Assembly: GCA_947175645.1 (NCBI GenBank)
Contig: CAMWNP010000003.1
Coordinates: forward strand, 93,629 to 157,628
DNA from: an uncultured Porphyromonadaceae bacterium
Lineage (GTDB): Bacteria; Bacteroidota; Bacteroidia; Bacteroidales; Muribaculaceae
DNA: 64,000 nt
Reading direction: 5' to 3'
The notes under the pieces were generated by a model. That model was not told the origin of the DNA, searched no databases, and saw only the letters and a list, made by a program, of their open reading frames with translations. A program made the position numbers and the translations under genes. Positions 3,673 through 52,992 of this stretch are shown piece after piece. Every line of letters starts with the position of its first letter. Positions within the stretch are counted from its first letter, which is position 1.

Positions 3673-3695
3673 TCCACACAGACAACTGCATACAA

Positions 3696-5051: not shown

Positions 5052-5086
5052 ACACTCTTCTCTCACCATTCCCACATTTCTCCACC

Positions 5087-9663: not shown

Positions 9664-9744
9664 TCCCGGAAAACAAATGACTCTAACACAAAACACAAAA
9701 ATATACAAGGTACGGAAGTACTGATAACAAGAAAAATAAGATAT

Positions 9745-12545: not shown

Positions 12546-12619
12546 CGCCTGTCGCAACTATTTCATAATCAGGCCAACGAGTTAACTGATATAATTAATC
12601 CGGGAAGAACAGTCATTCA

Positions 12620-13432: not shown

Positions 13433-13436
13433 GAGC

Positions 13437-37958: not shown

Positions 37959-38136
37959 TTATCTGCTCCACACGCCTCACAACGAATACCTTAACGGCAG
38001 TTCCGCTTATAAGTTATCCGGCCGTCAAAAGTTGTGATATGTCACAAAAATAGGCCTGATTGTTTGGAACTGTTATTTTGGCGCATGATTTTTTATGCTT
38101 TTCAGCATGAAAATTGCACGATTCACCAAATATCAT

Positions 38137-38144
38137 TATATTTG
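38137..38144 (+). promoter_or_regulatory. -7 box six bases before the RHS-partner start codon
   Basis: TATATTTG matches TAnnTTTG and ends at 38144; the ATG is at 38151. ATTG at 38113-38116 is a weak -33. A start site about 7 bases after the box would fall on the start codon, so the RHS operon may also be leaderless. Confidence 0.5.
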
Positions 38145-38150
38145 TGAATC

Positions 38151-39089
38151 ATGAAACCAAAAGTCGTCACATTTCTGCTTTTTCTTGCCTGCGTGCTGTG
38201 CAGCGGCTTCACTGACAACCGTCTGAGAGTAAGGACGGTTGCGGTTGACGGGGCTTCGCGCATGTGGGATTTTTCCGCAGGTGAGGCGGTTGATGACTGC
38301 CCGGTTTACCGCAGTTACGGCGACACCCTGCTGACAGAGTATTTCAACGGTCACCGCCAGTGGTACGGATTCCGGGGCGACACTACAGTGTATTTGGGCG
38401 AGGAGTCGCGGCTGATACGCCTTATTCCGCAGGACACCATCCTGACGGCTGCTTTCGGCAACGGCGGATTGTTCGGAGTCAAGGCGGAGAGCGATTCGGG
38501 CAGGTTCTGCCGCCGCTATCCGCTGGGCACATCCGGGGTTTACCGTTCGGAACCACCCGTGGAAGGATTGCTGGTGCTTGCCGAGGGTGATACCATGCCA
38601 GCGGTAGCAGTCAGAGAGATCCGCAATTACCGTCGCTGGCTCGTCTCCGACACGTTGCCCGGACTTAGCCGTGAGGTGACGCGCACCCGATGGTTCCTGG
38701 AGGGTATGCGTCTGCCGGTGGTTCTGCAAATCACAGACATCACATCCGATTCCACCGGAGTGATACGTTCCTACACTGAAGCATACAGAATTGACAGCAA
38801 TGACCTGGAGGATATCCTCACACCCGCGGACAGGCTGCAACAGGCCCTGCGTGACGCCGACATAACGGTTGAGAGTGGCATGGTCACCGTTAGCGGAGCC
38901 TTTCCTGAGGGTACGGTTCTGATGCTGAGCATATCCGGACTGATGGGTAACGGTCTCATGCAGCGGGAACTGACGTGCGACGGAGAGGGCTTATGCCGGA
39001 TGAGTCTGCCGTCATTGAATCCGGGTCAATATATACTGACGGTGTCGGCAGGTACACCGGTGAACCGTAAAGTCATAATTAACGAATGA
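38151..39089 (+). CDS. Secreted protein co-transcribed with RHS, sorting-domain-like C-terminus
   Basis: A 312-residue exported protein I cannot assign. It has a signal peptide (about residues 1-20; cysteines in it leave open a lipoprotein). The middle is beta-rich with repeated acidic/Gly turns such as LTEYFNGHRQWYGFRGD and GVIRSYTEAYRIDSND. The last 75 residues (ITVESGMVTVSGAFPEGT through LNPGQYILTVSAG) resemble the beta-sandwich of type IX secretion sorting domains. That resemblance is by eye only. Its stop overlaps the RHS start by 4 bases, so the two are made together and it may help export or present the RHS protein. Confidence 0.65.
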   Translation: MKPKVVTFLLFLACVLCSGFTDNRLRVRTVAVDGASRMWDFSAGEAVDDCPVYRSYGDTLLTEYFNGHRQWYGFRGDTTVYLGEESRLIRLIPQDTILTAAFGNGGLFGVKAESDSGRFCRRYPLGTSGVYRSEPPVEGLLVLAEGDTMPAVAVREIRNYRRWLVSDTLPGLSREVTRTRWFLEGMRLPVVLQITDITSDSTGVIRSYTEAYRIDSNDLEDILTPADRLQQALRDADITVESGMVTVSGAFPEGTVLMLSISGLMGNGLMQRELTCDGEGLCRMSLPSLNPGQYILTVSAGTPVNRKVIINE

Positions 39090-42000
39090 CCGCCATGACC
39101 CGTCCGCTCCTTACATTCATGCTGCTGATGCTTGCCATGGTCACGACACGGGCCGAGGCTCCTGACATGCGCCCCGATGACAAGGTATGGCCCGAGTCAC
39201 CGCAGGCACGTGCTTTCAGCGAGGTGATGATGCCGGTGCCGTCACTAATGACCGGTGCGTGTGAGTTCACAGTACCGCTCTACACCATTGATGTCGAAGG
39301 GTTCAGGATACCTCTGGCTTTAAGTTACCACAGCAACGGCATAAAGATGAGCGACGATCCCCGTCCGCTGGGCTACGGGTGGAGCCTGACACCACCGCTG
39401 CGCATCAGCCGTACCATCATGGGGCGTCCCGACGGCATAGTCACGAATGTGGCGGCACGGGGAAAAGAGTTCGCCGCTTCTGATGTTAAGAAAGCCCACG
39501 GTTGTATTGCCAAACGACTGGGCACCATCGTTTCCGATGATTTTTATGACAGCGAATATGACATATTCACTATCTATCTGATTGACGCCACGCTGACTGT
39601 AATTTACAAAAACGGAGCCTTCGTGGGGGTAAACACCAGCGAGTACCGCATAACAGCCGACAGCAAACTGAAAGTCATCAAGGTAACGGACACGCAGGGT
39701 AACATCTATGAGTTTTCCGTCAGCGCCAACTACTGCAGCGGTTCCACGGGACAATATGAATGGATGCTCTCCTCCGTGACCCTTCAGAGCGGAACAAGAA
39801 TAACACTGGGATGGCATGACATGGCCCCCTTCTCCCACGCCCGTATCGCACCCCCGCGAAGCATAATATATAATAATGAGGGTGGATTCCTCTATGACAC
39901 CTATCGTTTCAGCGATGAATATACCGAGACGAGTTCCGGCAGCAGCGAAAATATCAAGTCCTTGTCATGGATATCATTCCCCGGAGGAAAACTCACCTGC
40001 AGTTACACCGGCGAGAGACTTGCCAAAGTCAACGTAAGCAACTATTCCACTGACATTTTCACCGCCTCACTGAGCAATGATGGCAAGCGGCTAAACAGTG
40101 TGACGATCGGAGGGGTGGGGAAATATACATTCGGGTACAACTCCGCTCCTGCCGTTGAAGATGAAACAGCGTGCGACTGGTGGGGCTACCCTAACGGAAA
40201 AGATAACCGCCGCGACGGACGCCGTATGCTCTCGCCTCACTTAAAGATAAAGGGATTGCCCGACACCCTGCGTGACTTCGGCGTAGACCGCTCGGTCAAC
40301 GCGCAGCAATCCATGTCCTACATGCTCCGAGAAGTGACCTATCCCACCGGCGGATCCACCACTTGGGATTACGAACTCCACCGGTTTAACGCTCCCTTAC
40401 CACCTGTCCATACCGATTTAAAGATAGATAACGAGATCACCCCTACCCAGGGAGGCGGTGTACGAGTAAAGAGCATCTCCCACAGTTCCGGCTCCGGAAT
40501 CTCACGGCGTACTTATTACTACGGCGAGAACCGTAGCGGACTGGCGCGTGTGGAAGCGGTTCCATTCCTTTCCACCTTCATTGACTACAATAATCTGCTC
40601 ATCCGGCGCACCACAACCGAGCATAATAGCCAGGCGGCTCTGTGGCAGGACTCAAGGGTGATCGTCAACCACCAGTCAAACTACCTTGAGCAGCATCCCG
40701 GACTGACCCCCATCTGGTATGACCATGTGGAGGAAGTCTCCGATGAAGGAAAAACCGAGTACACCTTCACGAAACTGTCACCCGGCAATCTGGTCTATGA
40801 GCCTTACGGCCGTGTGACCGTCGACGGCGCCTATCATCTCTACACCCCCTTCTCCAAAGGGCCCGTGATGACAAAAAAGTCAGTCTACGAGGTAAACTCC
40901 TTCGGTACATATAAAAAATTGGAGGAGGAAGAATATGACTACCGCACGGTGCGGGCGCTCACGGACAGTGTTGTCCCCTTCTTCCGCGTCTACCGCAACC
41001 ATATAGTAATTGACGGCGATGACGCACCCGACTGGAACTTACGCACCGAGGGCTTCTCCACCCATTATTTCGTCAGAGGACGCCACTCCGTCACGAGTCC
41101 GGAAGGGACTGTCTTCAGTATCGCTGACACTCCCGCCGCTGCATCCTCATCCGGCAGTGTACTGACTCCGGAGACCCCGGCGGAACAGTCTGCATTCTGG
41201 TATTCTCCACAGACCTACCACCTGCATCTGCAAACCGAGCAACTACAGAGGAAAATCACCCGCCGCTTCTATGGCAGCCACACGATGACCACCACCGAAC
41301 GCTACTCCTACAAGCCCGGGACATCCCTGATGCAGTCAACAGTGGTAAGCAACGGCACCGACTCCGTCCGCACCGAGTACTGCTACGTTGACTCCCTCTC
41401 CGCCACAATGCGCGGTGTCATGGCCTCCCGCAACATCACCGGCATCCCTGTCTCAGTCAGGGAATTCCACAAAGGAGCCATGGCCGGCTACGCCCTCGAG
41501 ATGTGCCAGAGCGGCAACTCCCTACGCCCGCGACGCGTGTGGCGTCTGCGCAACGCTGAGCGGTGGAGTGCCGACACCTATGAATACAACAGCAAGGGAC
41601 AACTGATCACGCGCACAACTCCCACAGGACTCAAAACCGTGTGGACACGCGACTCCCTGGGAAACCCGCTGAAAATGAACGTTGGAGATGGCGCGTTGGT
41701 CAGCAATGCCACATGGACGGCGCTCATTGGCGTCACATCGCTGACCACTCCGGCAGGAATTAAAGAAACTTTCACCTACGACTCATTCGGCCGACTTGCA
41801 TCACGCTCACTGAATTCCCGTCTGCTTGAAGAATACATCTACAGCACCGCTCCCGGCGATTATCATCTGCAGACCAGAAACCACTATAGTGCCGACGGCT
41901 ATCTGAGCAACTATGCCCGTTACGACGGTCTGGGCAGGAACTACATGAGTCAGCAGGAACAGCCCGACGGTACCTTCCTGACCGTACTGACGGACTACGA

Positions 42001-45000
42001 TCCCATGAGCCGACCTGAGAAACAATGGCTCCCCGTACCCGCCACTCCCGGCATCACACCATACAACTTCCGTGTCGCCGCACGTGAGTACTACAACGAT
42101 GACAACCCCTATCAGACAATGGTCTACGAACACTCCCCCCGCGGTATTCTCACCAAGAGCATCCGCCCCGGTGAGGCCTGGCACAACGGAGAAATAAACA
42201 GTTTTCCGCAGGAAACCTTAGGGGGAGGAATAGCCCACAGCCAGAGGATAGCCCTCGCCACCAACACAGCAGGTTCATCAGCCGGTGTAGACCGATATGA
42301 GATCACATCCACAGGAGTGCGCCTTAACGGCAAACACCCCGACGGGACCCTGATGATGCAGACCACCACCGATGAAGATGACCACATTGAAGTGGTCACC
42401 ACGGACTTCCGAGGAAACACCCTATTACTTCAGAATCCCGGTGGTACCAACTACATCTACAACGACTTCGGTGAACTCGCCTACATCCTTCCCCCCGGAT
42501 TGACCGGAACACATAGTCGCACAGACCAAATCATGCAGCAACTCGCCTACTGGTATGATTACGACAGCCGCGGACGTCTCGTCACCAAGAAACTCCCCGG
42601 TGTGCGCGAAACCTACTACATCTACGACAGCGCTGACCGCCTGGTGGCGGAGCAGAACGCCGACCTCGCCTCCGGACAGTGGCGTCTCTACGGCTACGAC
42701 CGCCTGGGGCGCAGTGTCCTCACCCTTGACTGCCGCATCACCCGCGCACAGGCCGAGCAATACGCCTCGGCACTCCGTACTGCCGTACTTGACGGCGGAC
42801 CGCTCCAAGGCTACACCCTGGCAGGAGTGCCCGTCAGCAAACCAACAGTCGTCACAGCCTCCTACTATGACAACTACAACTTCATAACCCTGCTGTCGCT
42901 TCCTGACGCGTTCAACTCCACGGCGCCGAAAACCTACTCATCCATAGCCCATTCATTCCCCGCCTTCTTCACCACCTGCGCCGGATTGCTCACGGGCGTC
43001 TACACCGGCAGCGGCTACGAAGCCTATTACTACGACAATGCCGGACGCGTCATGCAGCGCTACGCCACAGGCTTCAACACCGGGCGTACCACCAACTACT
43101 ACACCTACGCCGGACAGACCGCCGTCACCGTACATGAGTCCGATTCCGACGAATCGGCTGGGAGCACCGTTGTGGAATACACCTACGACACCGCCGGTCG
43201 CCCCACGCAGACCAAGGTGACCAAAAGTTTCCCGAAATCCCCCATATTGATCCCGATCTCCACGGCAGAACAGCCCGACCAATCCGGCACGCTTATCCCC
43301 ATACAGCCGCAGCCGGGACCCAGGGATTATTACACCTCCACCCTCACCACCACCTACAACTCGCTGGGTCAGCCCGTTACCACCCGTCACGGTAACGGAA
43401 TCACCCGCAACTATACCTACAACCTCCACGGATGGCTCAAAAACACGCAGACCACCCTGATGTTGAAAACATTGAATGAGACCCTTCACTATGAGACAGG
43501 AAAATATCCCTGCTACAACGGCAACATCTCCGCCAAGGAATGGACAAACGGACGCTACGACTATCAGTATGACAACTACAACCGCCTGACCAATGCCTGG
43601 TTCGACACAGAAAACTATCCCGGCGACTACACGGTGTCTTACACCTATGATTCCCGCGGTAACCCGGAGTTTGTCAAGCGAAAGGGTGTGATAGATAAAT
43701 CATCTTCCTCCAAAATCACCACCGGTGTCCTTGACCAGATGTCAATGAGTTACGCGGGCAACCGACTGATCAGCATAGATTGTATGAGCGAGGCACTCCC
43801 GTATGAGGGGATGACCGGTATAGGGAAGAACGACATTTTCAATCTCGGATACGACTCGGCAGGACGCCTCACCTCAGATTTCACCCGCGACATCCTCACC
43901 GTCATATATGACAACAATGGCAATGCCATCTGGACTGAATTCGTGAACGGCTCCTCCGTGACAGATTATTACGACGGTATGGGGAACCATCTCGCTACCG
44001 ATATATGCGAGATAGATTATGCCCTTTCAAAAAGTCATGACCGCGAATATACAGGGTCAGGACTGATAATCGAAAACGGCGAGCCACAGATAGAGCGTGT
44101 TCCCGGCGGATACTTCGATTACGCCACCAAAACCTTCCGATACTACATAACGGACTATCAGGGAAATAACATTGCGGTAGCAGGTGAACTCGGACAAATC
44201 CTGGAGCAGACCGATTATTACCCCTACGGAGAGCCGTGGCAAGAGCCGGACCATCCGTTCACCTACTCCGACAACGAGCGCCTCCACACCTTCGGTCAGA
44301 ACCAGTATGACTTCCACGCCCGCCGTCTGATCTCATCCCTCCTCCGCTTCGACAAGCCCGATCCGCTGATGGAGAAATACCCCTGGCTCAGCCCCTACAC
44401 TTTCTGTGGAGGCAACCCGATAATGTATACGGATCATGATGGCTTGAAATTCACTAAGGACGCAGAAAAAGTAGTTAAGGAATTCAAAAATGAAGTTAAA
44501 AAAATGGCTCAAAATTCTGAAATAGAGATTCAAATGCGTAGAAATCTTAAGTCAGTGTTAGTTGGTAGTATGGCAGAATATAATCAGCAGTCATTGAACG
44601 CTGTACAAGAGACATTTGATGAAATGAACGAAGTTCTTTCAGAAATTGAAGTACTTAACAAATCAGACCAGGAATATGATATAAAACTAACGCAGCCTGA
44701 TCCGAATTCAGATATCAGTATAGGAAGTACCGACATGACAGACGATGGCAAAATACTGATGGAAATTCCAAGGGGTAATATAACTTTGACTGCTCATGAA
44801 TTAAAACATGCCTATCAGTTTGAAGAAGGAGAAATAAGTTTTGGAAAGGCCAAACATGGATTTTATGATTTAACAGATGAAGAAGCGGCTTACAAACGGG
44901 CTACGCATTTCGGAGGAAGCATGAACGATTTTAATCCCGATAACTATAGCCGGTATCCAACAGATAACAGGAGTTTAAGCAAGCATTTTTTTGGAAATAA

Positions 45001-45100
45001 AAATGTAGCGCCAAGCATACTTCAAGGCATGGCAGATCAACATCAAATAAAAATGAGATGGGGTGGCAAAACATATATAGGTAAGAAAAAATCAAAATAA
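39086..45100 (+). CDS. RHS-repeat polymorphic toxin with zincin-like C-terminal domain
   Basis: A 2004-residue secreted RHS protein. It has a signal peptide (about 1-25), an N-terminal Bacteroidetes-type beta domain (LSYHSNGIKMSDDPRPLGYG), and YD/RHS repeats from about 860 on. The RHS core ends in DYYPYGEPWQ and then RFDKPDPLMEKYPW, equivalent to the usual DPxGL region. After DHDGLKF (about 1783-1789) the sequence switches to an AT-rich tip of about 215 residues holding HELKH (1904-1908) and a downstream TDEEAA that could supply the third metal ligand, as in zinc metallopeptidases. An immunity-like gene starts 7 bases after the stop. ATG 39095 is an alternative start. Confidence 0.9.
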   Translation: MTAMTRPLLTFMLLMLAMVTTRAEAPDMRPDDKVWPESPQARAFSEVMMPVPSLMTGACEFTVPLYTIDVEGFRIPLALSYHSNGIKMSDDPRPLGYGWSLTPPLRISRTIMGRPDGIVTNVAARGKEFAASDVKKAHGCIAKRLGTIVSDDFYDSEYDIFTIYLIDATLTVIYKNGAFVGVNTSEYRITADSKLKVIKVTDTQGNIYEFSVSANYCSGSTGQYEWMLSSVTLQSGTRITLGWHDMAPFSHARIAPPRSIIYNNEGGFLYDTYRFSDEYTETSSGSSENIKSLSWISFPGGKLTCSYTGERLAKVNVSNYSTDIFTASLSNDGKRLNSVTIGGVGKYTFGYNSAPAVEDETACDWWGYPNGKDNRRDGRRMLSPHLKIKGLPDTLRDFGVDRSVNAQQSMSYMLREVTYPTGGSTTWDYELHRFNAPLPPVHTDLKIDNEITPTQGGGVRVKSISHSSGSGISRRTYYYGENRSGLARVEAVPFLSTFIDYNNLLIRRTTTEHNSQAALWQDSRVIVNHQSNYLEQHPGLTPIWYDHVEEVSDEGKTEYTFTKLSPGNLVYEPYGRVTVDGAYHLYTPFSKGPVMTKKSVYEVNSFGTYKKLEEEEYDYRTVRALTDSVVPFFRVYRNHIVIDGDDAPDWNLRTEGFSTHYFVRGRHSVTSPEGTVFSIADTPAAASSSGSVLTPETPAEQSAFWYSPQTYHLHLQTEQLQRKITRRFYGSHTMTTTERYSYKPGTSLMQSTVVSNGTDSVRTEYCYVDSLSATMRGVMASRNITGIPVSVREFHKGAMAGYALEMCQSGNSLRPRRVWRLRNAERWSADTYEYNSKGQLITRTTPTGLKTVWTRDSLGNPLKMNVGDGALVSNATWTALIGVTSLTTPAGIKETFTYDSFGRLASRSLNSRLLEEYIYSTAPGDYHLQTRNHYSADGYLSNYARYDGLGRNYMSQQEQPDGTFLTVLTDYDPMSRPEKQWLPVPATPGITPYNFRVAAREYYNDDNPYQTMVYEHSPRGILTKSIRPGEAWHNGEINSFPQETLGGGIAHSQRIALATNTAGSSAGVDRYEITSTGVRLNGKHPDGTLMMQTTTDEDDHIEVVTTDFRGNTLLLQNPGGTNYIYNDFGELAYILPPGLTGTHSRTDQIMQQLAYWYDYDSRGRLVTKKLPGVRETYYIYDSADRLVAEQNADLASGQWRLYGYDRLGRSVLTLDCRITRAQAEQYASALRTAVLDGGPLQGYTLAGVPVSKPTVVTASYYDNYNFITLLSLPDAFNSTAPKTYSSIAHSFPAFFTTCAGLLTGVYTGSGYEAYYYDNAGRVMQRYATGFNTGRTTNYYTYAGQTAVTVHESDSDESAGSTVVEYTYDTAGRPTQTKVTKSFPKSPILIPISTAEQPDQSGTLIPIQPQPGPRDYYTSTLTTTYNSLGQPVTTRHGNGITRNYTYNLHGWLKNTQTTLMLKTLNETLHYETGKYPCYNGNISAKEWTNGRYDYQYDNYNRLTNAWFDTENYPGDYTVSYTYDSRGNPEFVKRKGVIDKSSSSKITTGVLDQMSMSYAGNRLISIDCMSEALPYEGMTGIGKNDIFNLGYDSAGRLTSDFTRDILTVIYDNNGNAIWTEFVNGSSVTDYYDGMGNHLATDICEIDYALSKSHDREYTGSGLIIENGEPQIERVPGGYFDYATKTFRYYITDYQGNNIAVAGELGQILEQTDYYPYGEPWQEPDHPFTYSDNERLHTFGQNQYDFHARRLISSLLRFDKPDPLMEKYPWLSPYTFCGGNPIMYTDHDGLKFTKDAEKVVKEFKNEVKKMAQNSEIEIQMRRNLKSVLVGSMAEYNQQSLNAVQETFDEMNEVLSEIEVLNKSDQEYDIKLTQPDPNSDISIGSTDMTDDGKILMEIPRGNITLTAHELKHAYQFEEGEISFGKAKHGFYDLTDEEAAYKRATHFGGSMNDFNPDNYSRYPTDNRSLSKHFFGNKNVAPSILQGMADQHQIKMRWGGKTYIGKKKSK
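44201..44455 (+). repeat. RHS seam repeat, copy in full-length gene
   Basis: This 255-base stretch encoding the end of the RHS core is almost identical to 46455-46709 in the second tip (only a few silent differences). It ends exactly where the toxin-specific AT-rich sequence begins. Shorter versions recur at 50290, 51740 and 52709. Confidence 0.9.
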
Positions 45101-45107
45101 GAAGATT

Positions 45108-45680
45108 ATGAAAAGATTATTATTTGTAATTATCAGTATGGTTGTAATTATGACCGCAGTTACCGGCAAAAGGCAGAAAGTGCCGATGTGTAGATATTGC
45201 AAAAATATAGATGTATATTTCAATGGAGACCGTAAGTTCCAGGAGTACCTTGTGTTGGATTATATTGATTCTATGTATTATCAACATCATATATCATTTA
45301 GAAGTCATTGCGATATGGGGTATTTCAAAATATTTAATGATACGTTAACCCTGGTGCATACCGCTACTGTGTATCGGACAAAAGATGAAATAAGTGTTGT
45401 CCAGAATGAAAAAACAAAGTTAGATAAATATTACACTTACAACTATCGTATAGAGGGTGGAGGAGATAGTATTTACATGAAACAACTGCTATTTTACCAA
45501 GATGAACTTGCGGGATTAGAACCAATACTATGCATTGAAAGATGGTATAAATGTAATGGATCTCTGGAATACTTGCCAATTGGAGAGATGTTGTATAAAG
45601 ATGAGGCATATCAAAGAGATTCATTGCTAAAAATATATGAGAGCCGGAATCATCCTGATAGCCTGGAAACCATGAAATAA
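45108..45680 (+). CDS. Putative immunity protein to the HELKH tip (CRYC family, copy 1)
   Basis: A 190-residue exported protein starting 7 bases after the toxin stop, the usual place for an immunity gene. It has an N-terminal hydrophobic segment but no lipobox cysteine. A CRYC motif follows at about residues 29-32, then a mostly beta-looking body with YNYRIEGGGDSIYMKQLLF. It is not a family I can name. It shares its body with the protein at 48665 (near identical) and is more distantly related to that at 47350 (CAYC), which follows the second HELKH tip. Pairing of related toxins with related neighbours supports the immunity call. Confidence 0.65.
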   Translation: MKRLLFVIISMVVIMTAVTGKRQKVPMCRYCKNIDVYFNGDRKFQEYLVLDYIDSMYYQHHISFRSHCDMGYFKIFNDTLTLVHTATVYRTKDEISVVQNEKTKLDKYYTYNYRIEGGGDSIYMKQLLFYQDELAGLEPILCIERWYKCNGSLEYLPIGEMLYKDEAYQRDSLLKIYESRNHPDSLETMK

Positions 45681-45736
45681 TAATGAAGGATTATATCCAA
45701 TGACTTATTGACAGATTGCAAATCAAATATACAATT
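45177..45736 (+). repeat. 560-base direct repeat, copy 1 (immunity gene body)
   Basis: 45177-45736 matches 48737-49296 at a constant offset of 3560 bases. Substitutions lie mostly in the first 190 bases; 45370-45713 is identical to its partner. The repeat covers the immunity body, stop and about 55 bases beyond. Confidence 0.92.
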
Positions 45737-45785
45737 CCGCCAGTGTCAAGTTTGCAAAGTCCATGGATTTTCACTAACTTGCAGC

Positions 45786-47345
45786 ATGAAAATTAACGAG
45801 GTCATAACCAGTGGAATCATCTATGACAACTACAACCGCCTGAAAGCCGCCGAGTTCGACACCGCCAACTACGATGGCGATTACTCCACCACATACTTCT
45901 ATAATGATCGTGGTAATCCAACCCGGATCAAACGATATGGAATCGTGGACAAATCGGGTATTAACGACCTTGTGTTCGGAAAGTTTGATGAGGCCGCTAT
46001 GTCGTATGATGGTAATCAACTGATAAAGGTAAACTCACGTAGTGACGCAATGGAGTATGAAGGACAGACCGGAATAGGTCACCGAGGAATATCATATCTG
46101 ACATATGACGCAGCCGGACGCCTGACCTCCGATGGCACGCGTGACATAGTGAATATAGAGTACGATAATAACGGCTATCCTGTAAGCACCGAATTTGAAG
46201 ATGGCTCGTCAGTATATGATTATTACGACGGCATGGGGAACCATCTCGCTACCGATATTTACGAGGCAGAATCGGTGCATGCAACCTGGCATGACCGCGA
46301 ATATACAGGGTCAGGACTTATAATAGAAAACAACAAGCCACAGATAGAGCGTGTTCCCGGCGGATACTTCGATTTCGCCACCAAAACCTTCCGCTACTAC
46401 ATAACAGACTATCAAGGAAACAACGTAGCCGTAACAGACAGTCAGGGAAAACTGCTGGAGCAGACCGATTATTACCCCTACGGAGAGCCGTGGCAAGAGC
46501 CGGACCATCCGTTCACCTACTCCGACAACGAGCGCCTCCACACCTTCGGTCAGAACCAGTATGACTTCCACGCCCGCCGTCTGATCTCATCCCTCCTCCG
46601 CTTCGACAAGCCCGATCCGCTGATGGAGAAATACCCCTGGCTCAGCCCCTACACTTTCTGTGGTGGCAACCCGATAATGTATACGGATCATGATGGTTTG
46701 AAATTCACTGAACGGGCTGAAGAAGTAGTTACGGAATATGAGAATCTTGTCAATTCAAAAATAGAATCTGCAGAGAAAGATTTAGCAAAACAACAAAGCA
46801 GATTGGAAAACGCAAAGAATGAAAAGCAAAAGAGAAAGATTGAGAAAAAGATCGCAAAAATCAATGATGTAAAGAACGAAATGAAGGCTATCCTTAATGA
46901 GTTATCAGTTCTACGAGAGTCTGACCAATCCTATGATATAGCACAATATGTTCCTGTTGTCAATGAATATGTACCGACAGATATAACTGGTAAAACGGAA
47001 TTCGAAAATGGGGTTGTCGTAATGACTATTCCAAATAACGAAATATCCTTGCTCGCACACGAATTAAAACATGCTTATCAGTTTGAAACCGGTAAGATGA
47101 ATTTTGGAGTTCGCTTAGACTTTACTGATATAACAGATGAAATAGAAGCCCATGAGAGAGGTTCTTATTTTGGTCAAAATAAAAATGGGTATCGCGATAA
47201 AAAGTATGAAAAATACAGCAAAACAGAGAATAGTTTAGATACTTATTATCACGGGATTGATGTCAAACCTGAAGTATTGGAACACTTATCAATCAATAGA
47301 AAGATAATATTTAGATGGAGAGGAAAGACATATAGTTATAAATGA
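45786..47345 (+). CDS. Displaced RHS tip 2 with second HELKH toxin domain
   Basis: A tip fragment with about 300 residues of RHS core fused to its own toxin domain. Core homology to the full-length gene begins near 45825 (YDNYNRL) and runs through the shared seam to 46709. The tip has a lysine/glutamate-rich coiled coil (IESAEKDLAKQQSRLENAK onward) and then AHELKHAYQFETG and TDEIEAHER, homologous to the tip of the full-length protein. Both end in RWxGKTY. There is an ATG at 45786 (and TTG 45708) but no signal peptide and no N-terminal cage, so it is unlikely to be exported as it stands. The neighbour at 47350 starts 4 bases after it. Confidence 0.8.
   Translation: MKINEVITSGIIYDNYNRLKAAEFDTANYDGDYSTTYFYNDRGNPTRIKRYGIVDKSGINDLVFGKFDEAAMSYDGNQLIKVNSRSDAMEYEGQTGIGHRGISYLTYDAAGRLTSDGTRDIVNIEYDNNGYPVSTEFEDGSSVYDYYDGMGNHLATDIYEAESVHATWHDREYTGSGLIIENNKPQIERVPGGYFDFATKTFRYYITDYQGNNVAVTDSQGKLLEQTDYYPYGEPWQEPDHPFTYSDNERLHTFGQNQYDFHARRLISSLLRFDKPDPLMEKYPWLSPYTFCGGNPIMYTDHDGLKFTERAEEVVTEYENLVNSKIESAEKDLAKQQSRLENAKNEKQKRKIEKKIAKINDVKNEMKAILNELSVLRESDQSYDIAQYVPVVNEYVPTDITGKTEFENGVVVMTIPNNEISLLAHELKHAYQFETGKMNFGVRLDFTDITDEIEAHERGSYFGQNKNGYRDKKYEKYSKTENSLDTYYHGIDVKPEVLEHLSINRKIIFRWRGKTYSYK
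46455..46709 (+). repeat. RHS seam repeat, copy in tip 2
   Basis: Near-identical partner of 44201-44455 at offset 2254. It supplies 255 bases of homology for recombination between the full-length gene and this tip. Confidence 0.9.
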
Positions 47346-47349
47346 TGAT

Positions 47350-47898
47350 ATGAAAAAAATGCCTTACATACTGCTATGCCTGATTATGGCTTTGTATATG
47401 GGATCATGTAAAAGTGACCGTATAAGTTTATGCGCTTATTGCAACCAGGTAGAAGTCTATTTTGAACTCATGCCATTTAATCAAAGAAAATACTTAATCC
47501 TTTTTTATGAAGATTCAATTTTTTTTGAGCATGTATCTGGGTTACCTTTTGATTTTGGAAAATTTCGCATTCATAATGACACTCTAACTTGCATGCCATA
47601 TTATTATTTGGAATACAATGAGAGAGCAATACCATTTACGGCAACATTAGATAAGGATGAGTATTCAACCGCACACATTTGGAACTATCGTATAGAAAGA
47701 GGCGGAGAAAGTCTATATTATATTGAATTATTTCATTCAGAAGGGACGCCACGCACATTGTTAGATATCCATAGATACTATAGATGTCATGGATCATTCA
47801 AATATCTCCCTACCGGTGACTATTGGCAAAAGGGTTTAGATGCCATAACAGATTCTTTGATAAGGGAACATGAAAAGAGTTGGAATATTATAGAATAA
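47350..47898 (+). CDS. Putative lipoprotein immunity protein to tip 2 (CAYC family)
   Basis: A 182-residue lipoprotein: the signal peptide ends in the lipobox MGSC, followed by CAYC at about residues 29-32. It is a divergent relative of the proteins at 45108 and 48665, sharing the CxYC motif, the FHNDTLT-like segment and the WNYRIERGGESLYYIELF stretch. It starts 4 bases after the tip 2 stop, so it is the natural immunity partner of that toxin. As a lipoprotein it would act in the periplasm or at the outer membrane, which would suit protection against an incoming peptidase. Confidence 0.65.
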   Translation: MKKMPYILLCLIMALYMGSCKSDRISLCAYCNQVEVYFELMPFNQRKYLILFYEDSIFFEHVSGLPFDFGKFRIHNDTLTCMPYYYLEYNERAIPFTATLDKDEYSTAHIWNYRIERGGESLYYIELFHSEGTPRTLLDIHRYYRCHGSFKYLPTGDYWQKGLDAITDSLIREHEKSWNIIE

Positions 47899-47978
47899 AC
47901 AGAAGAATCTTAAAGGCTTTTCAGTAATTATTTAAATATATAGATCACTAATGATAATAAATAAATGGCCAAGACTCA

Positions 47979-48632
47979 ATGATGCAATATTTGATAAAAA
48001 TGAGAAAGAAGGAGCAAGGCGTAAAAAGAAGTCTACAGAATATTATTCTGTTCAGTAGTATTATTAGTGTTATCATGTTTCTTAGTGTAAATTTTGCCAT
48101 GGGGTCTGAGAATATTGCATGCGATTTTTTAGAGGATGCCCATCGTGAAGAAATGTCAAACTATTTCGACTCCATAATTGTGGACTACCATTTTGGTGGC
48201 ACGATTAAATTAAACCCGGAAACGTTTGTAATAACAAAAACCGGTCTTCCGGTGGAATATCGAAAGGATCTATTAGAAGGCGAAGTAACAAAGGATATGA
48301 TTGATTCTATCATTAACCCTATTGAATCATTGTTTATAACAAAGAATAAGCCTATAGAACAGGGACTTAAACCGGATATATATGAAATAGAAACTGATGG
48401 CTACTTTTGGGACATTACCATCTATGCTAAAGATGGAGTGATTATCAACGAAAAATATTATGAGAATCAATATAGAAACGGCAAGATCGTCATCTATTCT
48501 ACTGATTTTGAAAGATTAAGGAAATTTATAAGAGGTTTTTTCGACAAAATATATATTGAAAATAGACATGCTTATTATAGACTATGGAGAAAACAGTTAA
48601 GAGAAAAGTACCGTAAAAACGAAGAACAATAA
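47979..48632 (+). CDS. Orphan immunity-like membrane-anchored protein (family B, copy 1)
   Basis: A 217-residue protein with one hydrophobic N-terminal segment (about residues 22-42) and a soluble body. I do not recognise the family, but it is a paralogue of the protein at 49340: both share a SII/SIE start, a short G-rich strand, and SIINPIESLFITKNKPI versus SVVCPIDSLFIRRCVPI. No toxin tip precedes it directly, so it looks like an orphan immunity gene kept for a toxin met from neighbours or lost. ATGs at 47979, 47982 and 48000 are all possible starts. Confidence 0.5.
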   Translation: MMQYLIKMRKKEQGVKRSLQNIILFSSIISVIMFLSVNFAMGSENIACDFLEDAHREEMSNYFDSIIVDYHFGGTIKLNPETFVITKTGLPVEYRKDLLEGEVTKDMIDSIINPIESLFITKNKPIEQGLKPDIYEIETDGYFWDITIYAKDGVIINEKYYENQYRNGKIVIYSTDFERLRKFIRGFFDKIYIENRHAYYRLWRKQLREKYRKNEEQ

Positions 48633-48664
48633 AGACGTAATCAAAGAATTCGTTGATAATAGAC

Positions 48665-49240
48665 ATGAAAAAACTGATTTATTTTTTTATCTTTATTTCC
48701 ACATTCTTCATCTTTGTCATGTGCCGTTCACCCAAAAAAGTGCCGATGTGTAGATATTGCAAAAATATAGATGTATATTTCAGGGGAGACCGTAAGTTCA
48801 AGGAGTACCTTGTGTTGGATTATATGGATTCAATGTATTATCGACATCATACATCATTTAGAGGTCAATGCGATATGGGGTATTTCAAAATATATAATGA
48901 TACGTTAACCCTGGTGCATACCGCTACTATGTATCGGACAAAAGATGAAATAAGTGTTGTCCAGAATGAAAAAACAAAGTTAGATAAATATTACACTTAC
49001 AACTATCGTATAGAGGGTGGAGGAGATAGTATTTACATGAAACAACTGCTATTTTACCAAGATGAACTTGCGGGATTAGAACCAATACTATGCATTGAAA
49101 GATGGTATAAATGTAATGGATCTCTGGAATACTTGCCAATTGGAGAGATGTTGTATAAAGATGAGGCATATCAAAGAGATTCATTGCTAAAAATATATGA
49201 GAGCCGGAATCATCCTGATAGCCTGGAAACCATGAAATAA
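48665..49240 (+). CDS. Duplicate CRYC immunity-like lipoprotein (copy 2)
   Basis: A 191-residue protein whose body is a near copy of that at 45108, but whose N-terminus is different and ends in a lipobox-like FVMC, making it a likely lipoprotein. The last half is identical to copy 1 in DNA. It is an orphan, with no adjacent toxin. ATG 48665 is chosen since it gives the signal peptide; a TTG at 48653 is upstream. The switch in N-terminus at a sharp boundary suggests a recombination between immunity genes. Confidence 0.65.
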   Translation: MKKLIYFFIFISTFFIFVMCRSPKKVPMCRYCKNIDVYFRGDRKFKEYLVLDYMDSMYYRHHTSFRGQCDMGYFKIYNDTLTLVHTATMYRTKDEISVVQNEKTKLDKYYTYNYRIEGGGDSIYMKQLLFYQDELAGLEPILCIERWYKCNGSLEYLPIGEMLYKDEAYQRDSLLKIYESRNHPDSLETMK

Positions 49241-49296
49241 TAATGAAGGATTATATCCAATGACTTATTGACATATTGCAAATTAAATATACAATT
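48737..49296 (+). repeat. 560-base direct repeat, copy 2
   Basis: Partner of 45177-45736 at offset 3560; see that entry for the distribution of differences. Confidence 0.92.
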
Positions 49297-49339
49297 TATA
49301 GAATTATATAATAAGTATGTTGTAAATAAAAAGTAATGT

Positions 49340-49915
49340 ATGGGAAAGAGCCTTGCAATTTTGCTTTTGATGAATATTATATTCAAATTTGTAGCACATG
49401 CTGATATCAATGAAATTTCAACTGATTCAGTGCTTCTTGATAATGTCAGCACGAATTATGATAGAAATACCTTAAAAAAGTTAGATATTGACTCAATTGA
49501 GATAGAATTGATTGGTGGTTATTTTGGTGAAGTAAAAATCTATCAGGATTTTTTTACTATACCTTCTTACGGATTACGTAAAATGCCTTATAATAAATAT
49601 AAAATTACAAGAGCGATAGTTGATTCTGTTGTTTGTCCTATAGATTCATTATTCATAAGACGTTGCGTACCGATAAGGGTTGGATACGAAGACCTTGGAC
49701 TACCTAAAGGGGCAATGATATCAGGTGATGGCCTATTCATAAAATATAGAATTTTTTATCATAATGGGAGAACAGTAGAAGACATGGAGCATCTTCCGCC
49801 TTATACATTGCGAAAGAAAATTATTTATTCAAAGGAAGTAGAGAAACTTACAGACTTTTTTAATAAATTAAATCAGTATATAATGGAGAATCTAAATTCA
49901 GGAGAAAATGTTTAA
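49340..49915 (+). CDS. Orphan immunity-like exported protein (family B, copy 2)
   Basis: A 191-residue protein with a probable signal peptide (about residues 1-21) and a soluble body. It is a paralogue of the protein at 47979, sharing the segment around SVVCPIDSLFIRRCVPI and the closing region with FFNKLNQYI versus FFDKIYIEN. Nothing similar is known to me. AT-rich like the other tip-associated genes. No toxin lies directly before it. Confidence 0.5.
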   Translation: MGKSLAILLLMNIIFKFVAHADINEISTDSVLLDNVSTNYDRNTLKKLDIDSIEIELIGGYFGEVKIYQDFFTIPSYGLRKMPYNKYKITRAIVDSVVCPIDSLFIRRCVPIRVGYEDLGLPKGAMISGDGLFIKYRIFYHNGRTVEDMEHLPPYTLRKKIIYSKEVEKLTDFFNKLNQYIMENLNSGENV

Positions 49916-49974
49916 TGTAAATCCCACGGATTAGCCTATAATGCAGTTATTAAATCCGATTTATGGGAAAAGTT

Positions 49975-50372
49975 TTATTTTAAGAACAGATTCCAATCAT
50001 CAAAAAATATAAACAACAATGACAGAACAGGTATTTTTAATTATTTTCTTTGCGGGCTTAGCGCTTTATGGTATAGCGATAGTCAATTTGATACGAATGT
50101 ATCGGAAACTGAGCGGTGAAAACGGAGAACAGAATGGGAGTAATCAACTGCGGATTTTACGATACATTAAGGAGTATCCGCAGTTTCGCTTGATGTACAT
50201 GGTAGTTATGCTGATTGGTATAGCCCTGCTGATTTTCACCCTCTGGTGGTTCGTCCTTTGAAATTCACAGAATTTGAATAAAGGATCCGCACACCTTCGG
50301 TCAGAACCAGTATGACTTCCACGCACGCCGTCTGATCTCCTCCCTCCTCCGCTTCGACAAACCCGATCCGCT
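49975..50372 (+). repeat. About 400-base cassette repeat, copy 1 (80-residue gene plus RHS seam)
   Basis: 49975-50372 matches 51418-51822 apart from a few bases and a short insertion (about 7 bases). It holds an upstream AT-rich leader, the 80-residue membrane-protein gene and about 80 bases of RHS core ending CCGATCCGCT. The two cassettes diverge right after that point into different tips. Confidence 0.9.
50019..50261 (+). CDS. 80-residue two-helix membrane protein, copy 1
   Basis: A small membrane protein with two hydrophobic segments (about residues 4-26 and 58-79) around a polar loop (YRKLSGENGEQNGSNQLRIL). It differs from the protein at 51461 by one residue (V for I at position 5). It is the gene that directly precedes RHS tip 3 and tip 4 in two cassettes. 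It may be an immunity protein against a membrane-acting toxin that is no longer adjacent; that is inference. Confidence 0.6.
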   Translation: MTEQVFLIIFFAGLALYGIAIVNLIRMYRKLSGENGEQNGSNQLRILRYIKEYPQFRLMYMVVMLIGIALLIFTLWWFVL

Positions 50373-51132
50373 TGCTGAGGATACTCCATGGGTTTCACCA
50401 TATAGTTTATGTTTGGGTAATCCGATAAGATTAACAGATAAAACCGGTCTATCTCCGGTATTAGATTCGGAGAAAAAAGACCAGTTCAAGTTATGTCAGG
50501 TCATTGAGAATTTTGATAATAATTCCAGTGCGACAAATAATAATCAACAGACTGAAACAAACACTGATAACAGTAGTGGCAATACAAGTGCGAATGCCAC
50601 TGAATCAACAAATTCTGTAACATCTACCGTAGAAGGAATTTGGAACTCCACTCTTGCTCGTATTGGAATTGGAGATATAGTTGCAGTTACTGGTACATTT
50701 AATTCTTGTGTGGGTATAGGTAGTTCTCAAAGAATTGAACTCGGTATCGTAACAAGAGGGACGGATGCTGGGAATATATATGTTGCTGTTAGTCCGGGAA
50801 TTATAGGAGGTATCGGGGCAGATGCAAGTGTTGGAATAGTTAATTATAATGTAATTGGTAGTGTTGATTGTGTATCAACAGGGGTTATAGAATCTTCATT
50901 ACGTAGTGATGGCGAGGCTTATAATAAGGCATCCGTAAGTGCGAGTTATGGAGCCTCATTTAACTATTTTAGGATAGGAGGTGAAGTTGGCGCATCTTGC
51001 GCTATAGTGGATAACCCGGCAAGCAGTCAATATGGAAAGAATGTACTTGTTGTTAGTCATGGTGGATCCATTGGATTTGGTACGGGGGGTGTTTCAATAG
51101 GCATATCAAATACATTTTTACTTCTTAAATAA
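50278..51132 (+). pseudogene. Displaced RHS tip 3, no start codon, glycine-rich toxin-like end
   Basis: The frame opens after TGA at 50275-50277 and has no ATG before the RHS seam (HTFGQNQYDFHARR then RFDKPDPLAEDTPW). It continues into a new tip: a Ser/Asn/Thr-rich linker (about 50515-50630), then a Gly/Val/Ser-rich domain (GIGADASVGIVNYNVIGSVD and later GGVSIGISNTFLLLK). Such glycine-rich ends recall membrane-active or pore-forming tips, but no family is clear. TTG 50413 is the only near start. Without an upstream signal it should be silent unless fused to the full-length gene. A two-helix membrane protein follows. Confidence 0.7.
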
Positions 51133-51168
51133 ACAATTTATAACCATAATAATTTTAATAAAATAATT

Positions 51169-51426
51169 ATGATGAATAAAAATGAGTTATTGGTAATAAT
51201 TATATGGGTTGTATTTAATGTAATATACATACCGATATTCTCTTTCTTATTATACAAAAAACTTAAGAAGATTCTCATAGGAGATAAAAACAATCCTAAG
51301 ATTCCGGAACTTGACAAAAAGACTAAAGCGAAAACAATTTTTTGGCTTCGTTTTGCTACCATCATTTCATTTCTTTTTTATGAATTGTTTTGTACGTACG
51401 TAGTGTGGAAAAACATCTTATTTTAA
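51169..51426 (+). CDS. Putative membrane immunity protein to tip 3
   Basis: An 85-residue protein with two hydrophobic segments (about residues 6-27 and 59-79) around a lysine-rich loop (YKKLKKILIGDKNNPKIPEL). It starts 36 bases after the tip 3 stop. A membrane immunity protein would suit a membrane-acting tip. Not a family I know; sequence differs from the 80-residue proteins, though topology is alike. Confidence 0.5.
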   Translation: MMNKNELLVIIIWVVFNVIYIPIFSFLLYKKLKKILIGDKNNPKIPELDKKTKAKTIFWLRFATIISFLFYELFCTYVVWKNILF

Positions 51427-51822
51427 GAACAGATTCCAATCATAAAAAATATAAACAACAATGACAGAACAGATTTTTTTAATTATTTTCTTTGCGGGCT
51501 TAGCGCTTTATGGTATAGCGATAGTCAATTTGATACGAATGTATCGGAAACTGAGCGGTGAAAACGGAGAACAGAATGGGAGTAATCAACTGCGGATTTT
51601 ACGATACATTAAGGAGTATCCGCAGTTTCGCTTGATGTACATGGTAGTTATGCTGATTGGTATAGCCCTGCTGATTTTCACCCTCTGGTGGTTCGTCCTT
51701 TGAAATTCACAGAATCATATAGTTTGAATACAGGATCCGCACACCTTCGGACAGAACCGGTATGACTTCCACGCCCGCCGTCTGATCTCCTCCTTCCTCC
51801 GCTTCGACAAACCCGATCCGCT
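51418..51822 (+). repeat. About 400-base cassette repeat, copy 2
   Basis: Partner of 49975-50372. It starts inside the last codons of the preceding membrane-protein gene and ends in the RHS core of tip 4. Confidence 0.9.
51461..51703 (+). CDS. 80-residue two-helix membrane protein, copy 2
   Basis: Almost identical to the protein at 50019 in sequence, leader and downstream spacing; one residue differs. The copying includes non-coding flanks, which points to a recent duplication of the whole cassette junction rather than selection on the protein alone. It precedes tip 4. Confidence 0.6.
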   Translation: MTEQIFLIIFFAGLALYGIAIVNLIRMYRKLSGENGEQNGSNQLRILRYIKEYPQFRLMYMVVMLIGIALLIFTLWWFVL

Positions 51823-52143
51823 GATGGAGAAATACCCCTGGCTCAGTCCCGGTAATTTCAGTGGAGGGATTAAACAGGACTCTTCCCAAGATAGAGATGG
51901 AGTACAAAATTCAGTAAATGAGAAAATTAATATTGTGATAAATGAAAAATGACTGAGGCAGGAGCCGCCGAGGTTTACAGTCACGAGGCTAATGGACACG
52001 CGCTCTTGTATATTCGTAATGGAGGAGATCACCTCGGAGCAAGCCACAATAGGCCTATTGGTCAACCTGATTTAAATAAAGAACTGGTTGAGATGATTGC
52101 AAAATCCAGATATAACACAGTCCAGAACATGAAAAATCCATGA
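51728..52143 (+). pseudogene. Displaced RHS tip 4, split by a one-base shift
   Basis: The frame opens after TGA at 51725-51727 with no start codon, reads the RHS seam (HTFGQNRYDFHARR, RFDKPDPLMEKYPW) and a new linker (GGIKQDSSQDRDGVQN), and stops at 51950-51952. In the next frame, from ATG 51949, 64 more residues follow, including VYSHEANGHALLYIRNGGDH, a histidine/glutamate motif that recalls a metal-binding active site. One extra A in the A5 run at 51945-51949 would join the two parts. An exported immunity-like protein follows at 52148. Confidence 0.7.
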
Positions 52144-52147
52144 AACT

Positions 52148-52699
52148 ATGAATAGATTACTAATATTGTTAATATGTACGTTTATCAATACAAATTTATT
52201 TTCTCAACAACTTCCGGTTCAGGAAGTTGGTGCTTGTGGCGAAAATATTGATTACGTTGTATTGAACAATACGGACTCTCCATACATATTTTGGATCAAC
52301 AGAGACATTATCGATCAGACGAATCCCATTGATGACTCTGAAATCCTTGGGAGATTCAGGCAATATACGCATTATAAACCGGATCCGGTCCCCTCTAATT
52401 GGTTGACATTGGGTACTTGGTTAACTGACGGCAATGTTGTGCACCATTCAGATTATGCTTATCAGTATCAATTAGGAATTGATTACATTCATCGCCTGAT
52501 GCCTGGGGAATATTTGATAGTCAAAATAGACGGTGACGAGGAACGTAGAGAGTTCTATAGAAACCGATTTGCCTCAATGAAAGAATCCCTTTACTACGTA
52601 AGGATTGAAGACCCATTCATTAATCCGGATTCAATCTTGATTATAGACAATTCTCCTAAAACAGAACTTATGGAGCGAATCCGGGGTTCGGGCCATTAA
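52148..52699 (+). CDS. Putative exported immunity protein to tip 4
   Basis: A 183-residue protein with a signal peptide (hydrophobic residues about 3-17, then LFSQQ). The body has aromatic- and Asp-rich stretches such as SPYIFWINRDIIDQT and YAYQYQLGIDYIHRLMPGEY. It is not a family I can name. It starts 4 bases after the tip 4 stop, the same short spacing as the other toxin/immunity pairs. Its stop overlaps the ATG of tip 5. Confidence 0.55.
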   Translation: MNRLLILLICTFINTNLFSQQLPVQEVGACGENIDYVVLNNTDSPYIFWINRDIIDQTNPIDDSEILGRFRQYTHYKPDPVPSNWLTLGTWLTDGNVVHHSDYAYQYQLGIDYIHRLMPGEYLIVKIDGDEERREFYRNRFASMKESLYYVRIEDPFINPDSILIIDNSPKTELMERIRGSGH

Positions 52700-52962
52700 T
52701 GTTTTTGGTCTCCTCCCTCCTCCGCTTCGACAAGCCCGATCCGCTGATGGAGAAATACCCCTGGCTCAGCCCCTACACATATTGCGGTGGGAATCCAATT
52801 GTATGTATTGGCCCGAATGGTCTTAATCCTGTTTACACCACAAGGGATGTGCGTTTCAGTGCACATTGGAATCAGAAATTATTTTTATTTTCCCATCCTG
52901 CGAAAATCTCAGGAAAATTGCTTAAATTTGCAGTTGATTACAAAACAAGACTAATAACTTAG
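52699..52962 (+). pseudogene. RHS tip 5 remnant, toxin part lost
   Basis: An 87-residue frame that begins in RHS core (SSLLRFDKPDPLMEKYPWLS) and reads through YTYCGGNPIVCIGPNGLN, after which the sequence no longer looks like a toxin and ends in about 30 residues. It is the shortest seam of the array. The lysS promoter lies inside its last 40 bases, so the array has been cut back to the edge of an essential gene. Confidence 0.65.
52923..52930 (+). promoter_or_regulatory. Candidate lysS promoter -7 box inside tip 5 remnant
   Basis: TAAATTTG fits TAnnTTTG and lies 62 bases before the lysS ATG at 52993. The upstream -33 is not clear in the AT-rich sequence. Confidence 0.5.
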
Positions 52963-52992
52963 GCGGACTCTGTCCGTATAGAAAATATAAGT

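What the first reader, a model, noticed from the sequence alone, without database searches (positions are those of the whole stretch)
38151..52962. RHS polymorphic-toxin locus with a store of displaced tips and immunity genes
One full-length RHS protein (39086-45100) is followed by four partial RHS tips (45786, 50278, 51728, 52699). Each begins in the same core segment around RFDKPDP and diverges afterwards, and immunity-like genes lie between them. Tips 3 and 4 have no start codon and none of the four has a signal peptide, so they look like silent cassettes waiting for recombination onto the full-length gene. The amount of shared core falls along the array: about 300 codons, about 30, about 30, then about 20. 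Displaced tips are known for RHS and CDI systems. A five-tip array with duplicated orphan immunity genes in a Bacteroidales secreted RHS is what makes this one stand out.
Basis: partly seen in the sequence, partly recalled or inferred. Interest (0 to 1): 0.85.

Follow-up and report, generated by a model that had tools for sequence, protein, structure and literature searches.

The report
Toxin gene with archived immunity genes
A gut-type bacterium carries one large contact-toxin gene followed by worn-down copies of other toxin ends and a set of antidote-like genes, and its relatives suggest that the antidotes, more than the toxin ends, are what is being saved.

Summary
The array is real. One full-length RHS gene (39086-45100) is followed by four fragments that share its core end. 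Tips 2 and 3 are open frames, tip 4 is frame-broken and tip 5 keeps 46 residues. Orphan toxin/immunity arrays are already described for CDI and Rhs loci, with both rival readings in print: silent toxin store or retained immunity.

Relatives favour retained immunity. A same-genus species (G001) has orthologues of three window orphan genes and no core-bearing tip; one lies behind a copy of its operon promoter joined to the last 20 codons of tip 4. Operon-leader matches occur in 5 of 13 downstream arrays (one covers only the preceding gene's end), against 0 of 247 body tiles. G240 has an immunity-gene island without RHS core.

The store idea is not dead. Core and tip 2 share a sharp 242-nt tract with one mismatch. 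In G213 the active tip plus antidote is duplicated, 1,223 bases identical. 11 of 14 orphan tips stay open.

Verdict: new variant of a known kind; leader recapture by orphan immunity genes is the new point. The window itself shows no leader copy, and no function was tested.

The parts
38151..39089 (+). Partner gene, first of the operon, 312 aa with signal-peptide-like start and a 7-strand C-terminal beta domain
   Evidence: Found by tblastn in 14 of the 20 fetched loci; alignment. T9SS type A sorting domain TIGR04183 hit in 3 of 12 homologues, best E 0.00099, not in the window copy. Model pLDDT 81; PDB matches weak, none at E 0.001, DUF3244 sandwiches among them
38038..38150 (+). Operon leader with TAnnTTTG box at 38137
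   Evidence: No copy of it found in the window's own array (score 27, shuffled maximum 36)
39086..45100 (+). Full-length RHS toxin gene, 2004 aa; core ends near 44446
   Evidence: PF05593 E 4.6e-20, DUF6443 E 1.2e-12; TIGR03696 E 1e-8
44447..45100 (+). Active tip 1, HELKH motif, putative metallopeptidase
   Evidence: HExKH invariant in 4 of 4 aligned tips. Of the four only tip 2 hits Peptidase_M91, below cut-off, E 0.0069, behind unrelated coiled-coil-type hits. Model pLDDT 80, no PDB match at E 0.001
44201..44442 (+). Recombination tract, 1 mismatch in 242 nt to tip 2 (46455-46696)
45108..45680 (+). Imm1, presumed cognate immunity to tip 1
   Evidence: Position; 31% identical to imm2
45687..47345 (+). 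Orphan tip 2 with 294 profile columns of core; ATG at 45786
   Evidence: tip 34.6% identical to tip 1
47350..47898 (+). Imm2, presumed immunity to tip 2
   Evidence: Homologue of imm1
47979..48632 (+). OrphA, orphan immunity-like gene
   Evidence: Homologous to the gene directly behind G001's active tip, E 2e-6, 1e-7
48653..49240 (+). Imm1', second copy of imm1 with a different N-terminus
   Evidence: 560 nt at 97.7%; 11 non-synonymous to 2 synonymous differences
49340..49915 (+). OrphB, orphan immunity-like gene
   Evidence: Orthologue in G001 at 58%; homologous to the gene behind G001's active tip
50019..50261 (+). sm80, 80-aa small membrane-type protein, copy 1
   Evidence: 98.8% identical to copy 2; G001 orthologue at 72%
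50278..51132 (+). Orphan tip 3, open frame without a start before the core
   Evidence: No relative in 397 other family genomes at E 1e-4
51169..51426 (+). Imm3, 85-aa small membrane-type protein
   Evidence: Position after tip 3; no convincing Pfam hit
51461..51703 (+). sm80, copy 2
51728..52143 (+). Orphan tip 4, frame-broken (51728-51952 and 51949-52143 in different frames)
   Evidence: Its last 20 codons survive in G001 at 80%
52148..52699 (+). Imm4
   Evidence: Orthologue in G001 at 61-64% as an orphan; dN 0.27, dS 1.77
52660..52962 (+). Orphan tip 5, 46 residues after the core; ATG at 52699

Best explanation
The locus is a two-gene operon (partner plus RHS toxin) with a cognate immunity gene, followed by an archive of immunity genes left over from replaced toxins. 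Most likely, new tip-immunity pairs or whole operons arrive at the promoter-proximal end and the older ones are pushed downstream. Deletions then remove the old toxin body and later the tip, while the immunity genes stay under selection because neighbouring kin still fire those toxins. In several relatives the deletion has joined the operon's own leader (in one case also the signal-peptide start) close to the orphan immunity gene, which would keep it expressed. Tips that are still intact (window tips 2 and 3) are passengers that can still exchange sequence with the full-length gene through the shared core end. Shown: the anatomy, the recombination tract, the leader copies in relatives, the conserved orphan genes, the absence of tips in a relative. 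Inferred: expression, protection, order of events and export by the type IX system.
For: G001 (same genus, core 67% identical) has orthologues of orphB, sm80 and imm4 and no core-bearing tip fragment in the 11 kb held behind its toxin gene. Before its imm4 lie a copy of its operon promoter region (score 59, shuffled maximum 34) and the last 20 codons of tip 4. The gene directly behind G001's active tip is homologous to window orphA and orphB: the window holds immunity of the kind that matches a relative's active toxin. Ten of at most 17 such first-downstream genes have an orphan homologue in this set: six in another genome, six in their own array, two of them in both. 14 leaders against 21 arrays, 294 comparisons: six reach score 42, five of them own leader to own array, the sixth from G220 to same-genus G240. 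One of the five (G246) covers only the preceding gene's end, not the promoter. Leader tiles 5 of 13, body tiles 0 of 247 (Fisher 1.4e-7, tiles not independent). G240 has five immunity-type genes and no core match in its 18 kb by tblastn or by profile at E 10 in six frames, with the window and G001 as working controls; it is not among the 23 positive genomes, but is only 79% complete. dN/dS between window and G001: orphB 0.27/0.87, sm80 0.17/0.79, imm4 0.27/1.77, against 0.31/2.6 for the partner gene.
Against: No leader copy in the window's own array, so the model there rests on relatives; 8 of the 13 arrays tested show none either, the window among them. 11 of 14 orphan tips in the set are still open over 178 residues or more, which pure decay would not predict. 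Imm1' differs from imm1 mainly by non-synonymous changes (11 to 2), no sign of constraint. G001 lacks counterparts of imm1', imm2 and imm3 at E 1e-3. Relatives are draft assemblies, some titled as metagenome bins, so duplicated stretches could be misassembled. One genome per species is held, so no strain comparison was possible. Expression of an orphan immunity gene is already reported for E. coli EC93 (PMC3150448), so expression as such would not be new.
Confidence: 0.62

Rival explanations
1. Silent toxin store: the tips are kept as donors, and recombination through the shared core end loads one of them onto the full-length gene.
For: 209-nt identical run between full-length core and tip 2 within a region that has 84 mismatches in 594 nt. 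In G213 the active tip and its immunity gene recur downstream: 1,374 nt at 99.4% with 1,223 identical bases in a row, whereas the neighbouring 135 nt of core has seven mismatches. 7 of 11 long orphan tips are homologous to an active tip in the set (an eighth has only a 40-residue match at E 0.004, set aside). Orphan loading is known in Salmonella (PMC3967940, passages read).
Against: Tips 4 and 5 broken. G001 has orphan genes without core-bearing tips. Tip 3 seen in no other of 398 family genomes. In G213 the tip frame differs from the frame of the captured start codon, and the direction of copying is open. No genome with a window orphan tip on the full-length gene was seen.
Confidence: 0.25
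2. Neutral debris: tandem duplications and decay at a repeat-rich gene, with no function for the array.
For: Broken tips 4 and 5; relaxed pattern between imm1 and imm1'; duplicated end of the preceding gene in G246.
Against: Orphan orthologues conserved between window and G001 with dN well under dS. Leader copies against no body copies.
Confidence: 0.09
3. Each orphan tip with its immunity gene acts as a toxin-antitoxin pair inside the cell, as proposed for Salmonella RHS elements (PMC7043789, only the start of its abstract seen in a search listing).
For: Tip 2 has an ATG; one orphan tip in G011 begins with a signal-peptide-like stretch.
Against: Tip 3 lacks a start before the core. Several immunity genes start like exported or membrane proteins by eye, which fits an attack from outside.
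Confidence: 0.04

Closest known systems
Orphan cdiA-CT/cdiI and rhs-CT/rhsI modules (Poole 2011 PMC3150448; Ruhe 2016 PMC4927057; passages read)
   Same: Fragmented toxin ends with immunity genes, same strand, downstream of a full-length gene, short shared core, often no start codon; both the fossil/immunity and the silent-store model are stated there, and EC93 is reported to express its orphan immunity protein.
   Different: Bacteroidales RHS/DUF6443 protein with a partner gene; copies of the operon leader in front of orphan immunity genes, which I did not meet in the passages read or in the listings.
Salmonella LT2 rhs main/orphan (Koskiniemi 2014 PMC3967940; passages read)
   Same: Shared region of near identity between main and orphan gene allows recombination.
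   Different: There the orphan immunity gene was reported not normally expressed in the ancestor under laboratory conditions; here orphan genes of several relatives lie behind a leader copy, expression untested.
Serratia Rhs1 locus with working orphan immunity (PMC10539506, passages read)
   Same: Orphan immunity gene downstream of rhsI protects against another strain's tip on the same core.
   Different: Delivered by a type VI system; no leader copies in the passages read.
rAID orphan immunity arrays of gut Bacteroidales (PMC12247911, abstract and outline seen)
   Same: Arrays of orphan immunity genes in Bacteroidales.
   Different: rAID is recombinase-associated and protects against T6SS effectors; this array lies directly behind its own RHS toxin.
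TANFOR polymorphic toxins of Bacteroidetes (PMC7073777, passages read)
   Same: Large Bacteroidetes toxins with variable ends near T9SS-type proteins.
   Different: No TANFOR hit in the NCBIfam scan of the full-length protein at E 0.1.

Membership tests
Rhs polymorphic toxin | RHS/YD repeats and RHS-associated core | tested here: met
   PF05593 E 4.6e-20, TIGR03696 E 1e-8
Rhs polymorphic toxin | Variable end after a conserved core | tested here: met
   19 active tips, about 17 groups
Rhs polymorphic toxin | Immunity gene directly downstream that neutralises the tip | not testable with these tools
   Position and homology only
Orphan rhs/cdi module array | Downstream fragments with core end, tip and immunity gene on the same strand | tested here: met
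Silent cassette store | Sequence exchange between stored copy and expressed gene | tested here: inconclusive
   Tract in the window and duplicated cassette in G213; direction unknown, no strain data
rAID | Recombinase gene with the immunity array | tested here: not met
   No recombinase hit among the array genes scanned with Pfam; genes flanking the array were not scanned
TANFOR toxin | N-terminal TANFOR domain (TIGR02542) | tested here: not met
   Not among NCBIfam hits at E 0.1
T6SS-delivered Rhs | T6SS sheath gene in the genome | tested here: inconclusive
   PF05943 none, control rang in E. coli; PF17541 none but no control rang
T9SS-linked toxin | T9SS present and a sorting domain on the cargo | tested here: inconclusive
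   GldM 550 bits; sorting-domain hits only in 3 of 12 partner homologues, weak, none in the window copy

The most novel reading that the evidence does not exclude
The array is a layered immune memory made by repeated collapse of whole toxin operons. Each replaced operon loses its toxin body by a deletion that joins the shared leader to its own immunity gene, so that past toxins are remembered as expressed antidotes in order of arrival, with intact tips as a transient stage.
Probability: 0.3. Interest if true: 0.68.

Novelty: new variant of a known kind. Interest (0 to 1): 0.5.

Why it matters
Why bacteria keep orphan toxin/immunity arrays was left open in 2011: Poole et al. noted that, if immunity genes are what is collected, it is unclear why toxin fragments stay (PMC3150448, passage read). 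This family offers natural intermediates (tip intact, tip broken, 20 codons left with a leader copy, island without a toxin gene), so the order of loss and the role of expression become testable.

Tried and rejected
Rejected: a copy of the operon leader in the window's own array (score below the shuffled maximum). Not supported: a conserved chromosomal address; none of five genes flanking the window's locus was found in the stretches held of the 20 relatives' loci or G240, which reach only 1-2 kb upstream in most cases. Not supported: phage or plasmid carriage of this core as the evident source; viral contigs none, plasmids five records all under 40% identity.

Led nowhere: Pfam and NCBIfam names for the immunity genes and tip 3; PDB sequence search with the tip alignment; Foldseek for tip 1. 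The G213 genus search gave 4 of 111 genomes and no closer strain. The strict promoter pattern TTTG-N17-23-TAnnTTTG matched nowhere in 37801-53000. The link between window imm4 and the G240 gene is weak: seen (E 2e-6) but not by tblastn of imm4 against G240 at E 1e-2; that gene's closer relative is in G201 (55%).

Rows left out: of 26 places, two lie in the window, 20 were fetched, four were not (G204, G141, G219, G327). Five of 19 loci with a toxin gene have about 1 kb or less downstream before the contig ends. Core fragments cut by a contig end in G270 and G239 are not among the 14 orphan tips. Two loci (G314, G338) were left out of the leader test because the script found no partner frame, and G093 from the 13 arrays because 40 nt were held. 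The absence of core in G240 was first read, whose output was blank; it was redone with controls.
Full report
Setting. The window is the end of contig C3 of a 3.17-Mb genome in 139 contigs, 99.94% complete. That it is a Muribaculaceae-type gut bacterium is my guess.

Anatomy. The operon is a partner gene (38151-39089) and the RHS gene (39086-45100), then imm1 (45108-45680). Downstream come tip 2, imm2, orphA, imm1', orphB, sm80, tip 3, imm3, sm80', tip 4, imm4 and tip 5, all on the + strand and ending before a gene at 52993 that reads like lysyl-tRNA synthetase (that name is mine from the sequence). Tip 4 is frame-broken and tip 5 truncated. I did not read tip 4 through.

Recombination in the window. 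Full-length core and tip 2 can be laid side by side without gaps. From 43849 to 44200, 25 codons differ synonymously and 32 change the residue, of 117. From 44201 to 44442 one codon of 80 differs, synonymously. The boundary is sharp: 17 of 30 bases agree at 44170-44199, then all but one of 44201-44442. The longest identical run, 209 nt, exceeds the longest of 100,000 random placements, 96. This is a recent exchange or conversion through the core end. It does not say which copy was the donor.

Relatives. The core was found at E 1e-40 in 23 of 398 family genomes, the window's own included. I fetched 20 of the 24 places outside the window. A frame of more than 880 codons with the core is present in 18 of the 20 loci, so 19 with the window; three of these are clearly shorter than the usual 1930-2130 codons (1430, 1025, 885). 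Five of the 14 loci with at least 1.6 kb held downstream carry core-bearing orphan tips: the window, G213, G314 and two loci of G011. Two further loci, G270 and G201, have orphan tips without a full-length gene in the stretch held. Orphan tips total 14, of which 11 keep 178 or more residues open; 7 of these 11 resemble an active tip in the set, three in the same locus and four in another genome. Active tips are very diverse: 19 in about 17 groups.

The same-genus case, G001. Its active tip carries an HExxGH-like motif (motif reading mine) and shows no match to the window's tip 1. The gene behind it resembles window orphA and orphB. Further on lie orthologues of orphB, imm4 and sm80, but no core-bearing tip. 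Directly before imm4 stand a copy of G001's own operon promoter region and the last 20 codons of tip 4, 80% identical to the window's. The simplest reading is a deletion from the promoter into the end of toxin 4 that spared the antidote.

Leader copies. In 14 loci I aligned the operon leader with the downstream array. G001, G213, G220, G246 and G288 exceed the shuffled maximum; nine do not, the window among them. In G288 the leader with its ATG is fused at the ATG of an orphan copy of the first immunity gene. In G213 the leader with about five codons is fused to a piece of core, at two places. In G220 the end of the preceding gene and part of the promoter recur. In G246 only the end of the preceding gene and its terminator recur, so it is evidence of duplication, not of promoter capture. 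Across 294 leader-array pairs six reach score 42: these five and G220's leader against the G240 island. There an imm4-family gene begins like G220's partner gene (score 60, shuffled maximum 36). Tiles from the partner and the first RHS part gave 0 of 247 hits against 5 of 13 for leaders. G240 shows five immunity-type genes and no core in 18 kb, with working controls.

Exchange in a relative. G213's active tip and immunity gene recur downstream with 1,223 identical bases in a row, while the 135 nt of core just before has seven mismatches and the leader-bearing shell around the stored copy is more diverged (86% to the leader, 94% between the two shells). So a tip-immunity cassette was probably copied between the full-length gene and an existing shell, in unknown direction. 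A long exact repeat in a draft assembly calls for caution.

Selection. Orphan genes shared by window and G001 show dN well under dS, although dS is high and rough. Imm1 and imm1' do not (11 to 2).

Function. Tips 1 and 2 share an invariant HExKH motif with two homologues; tip 2 alone has a weak Peptidase_M91 match. The model of tip 1 is fair (pLDDT 80) but has no PDB match at E 0.001, so 'metallopeptidase' rests on the motif. Export may be by the type IX system: GldM is present and some partner homologues hit its sorting domain weakly. No type VI sheath gene was found, with one of the two tests lacking a control.

Known or new. Both models for orphan arrays are in print (PMC4927057, passages; PMC3150448, passages, which also reports an expressed orphan immunity protein in E. 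coli EC93). Orphan toxin loading is shown in Salmonella (PMC3967940, passages) and orphan immunity protection in Serratia (PMC10539506, passages) and gut Bacteroidales (PMC12247911, abstract). Searches for orphan immunity with promoter terms listed 5 and 2 papers, and for DUF6443 with Rhs and immunity none. Of those seven I read passages of two (PMC3150448, PMC10539506), so 'not in print' is tentative. The array as such is a new member of a known kind; the leader recapture makes it a variant.

Noticed in passing
L044 oriented 3569-7861 (own genome C9:33000-52000): A second RHS locus in the same genome, core 63% identical, whose open frame is only 1430 codons with the first ATG far inside; it may have lost its front part. 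It is followed by two immunity-like paralogues.
   Followed up: partly
L057 oriented 8781-9767 (G011 C16): An orphan tip whose frame begins with a signal-peptide-like stretch before a short core piece, as if it could be exported without the RHS body.
   Followed up: no
L054 oriented 448-649 and 8797-8998 (G246): The end of the gene before the operon, with its terminator, is repeated behind the immunity genes at 97%, possibly a footprint of a whole-operon tandem duplication.
   Followed up: partly
L058 oriented 12039-13541 (G011 C5): Open frames with a repeated peptide (EARRSQGRMSVREAI) beside the RHS array.
   Followed up: no
G000:C5:14859-15239 and G000:C3:20120-20500: Two RHS-core-like stretches in the same genome, both 34% identical to the query over the same residues, possibly copies of one element.
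   Followed up: no
window 45108-49240: Imm1 and imm1' are 97.7% identical at the DNA level from about codon 24 on but have different N-terminal signal stretches.
   Followed up: partly
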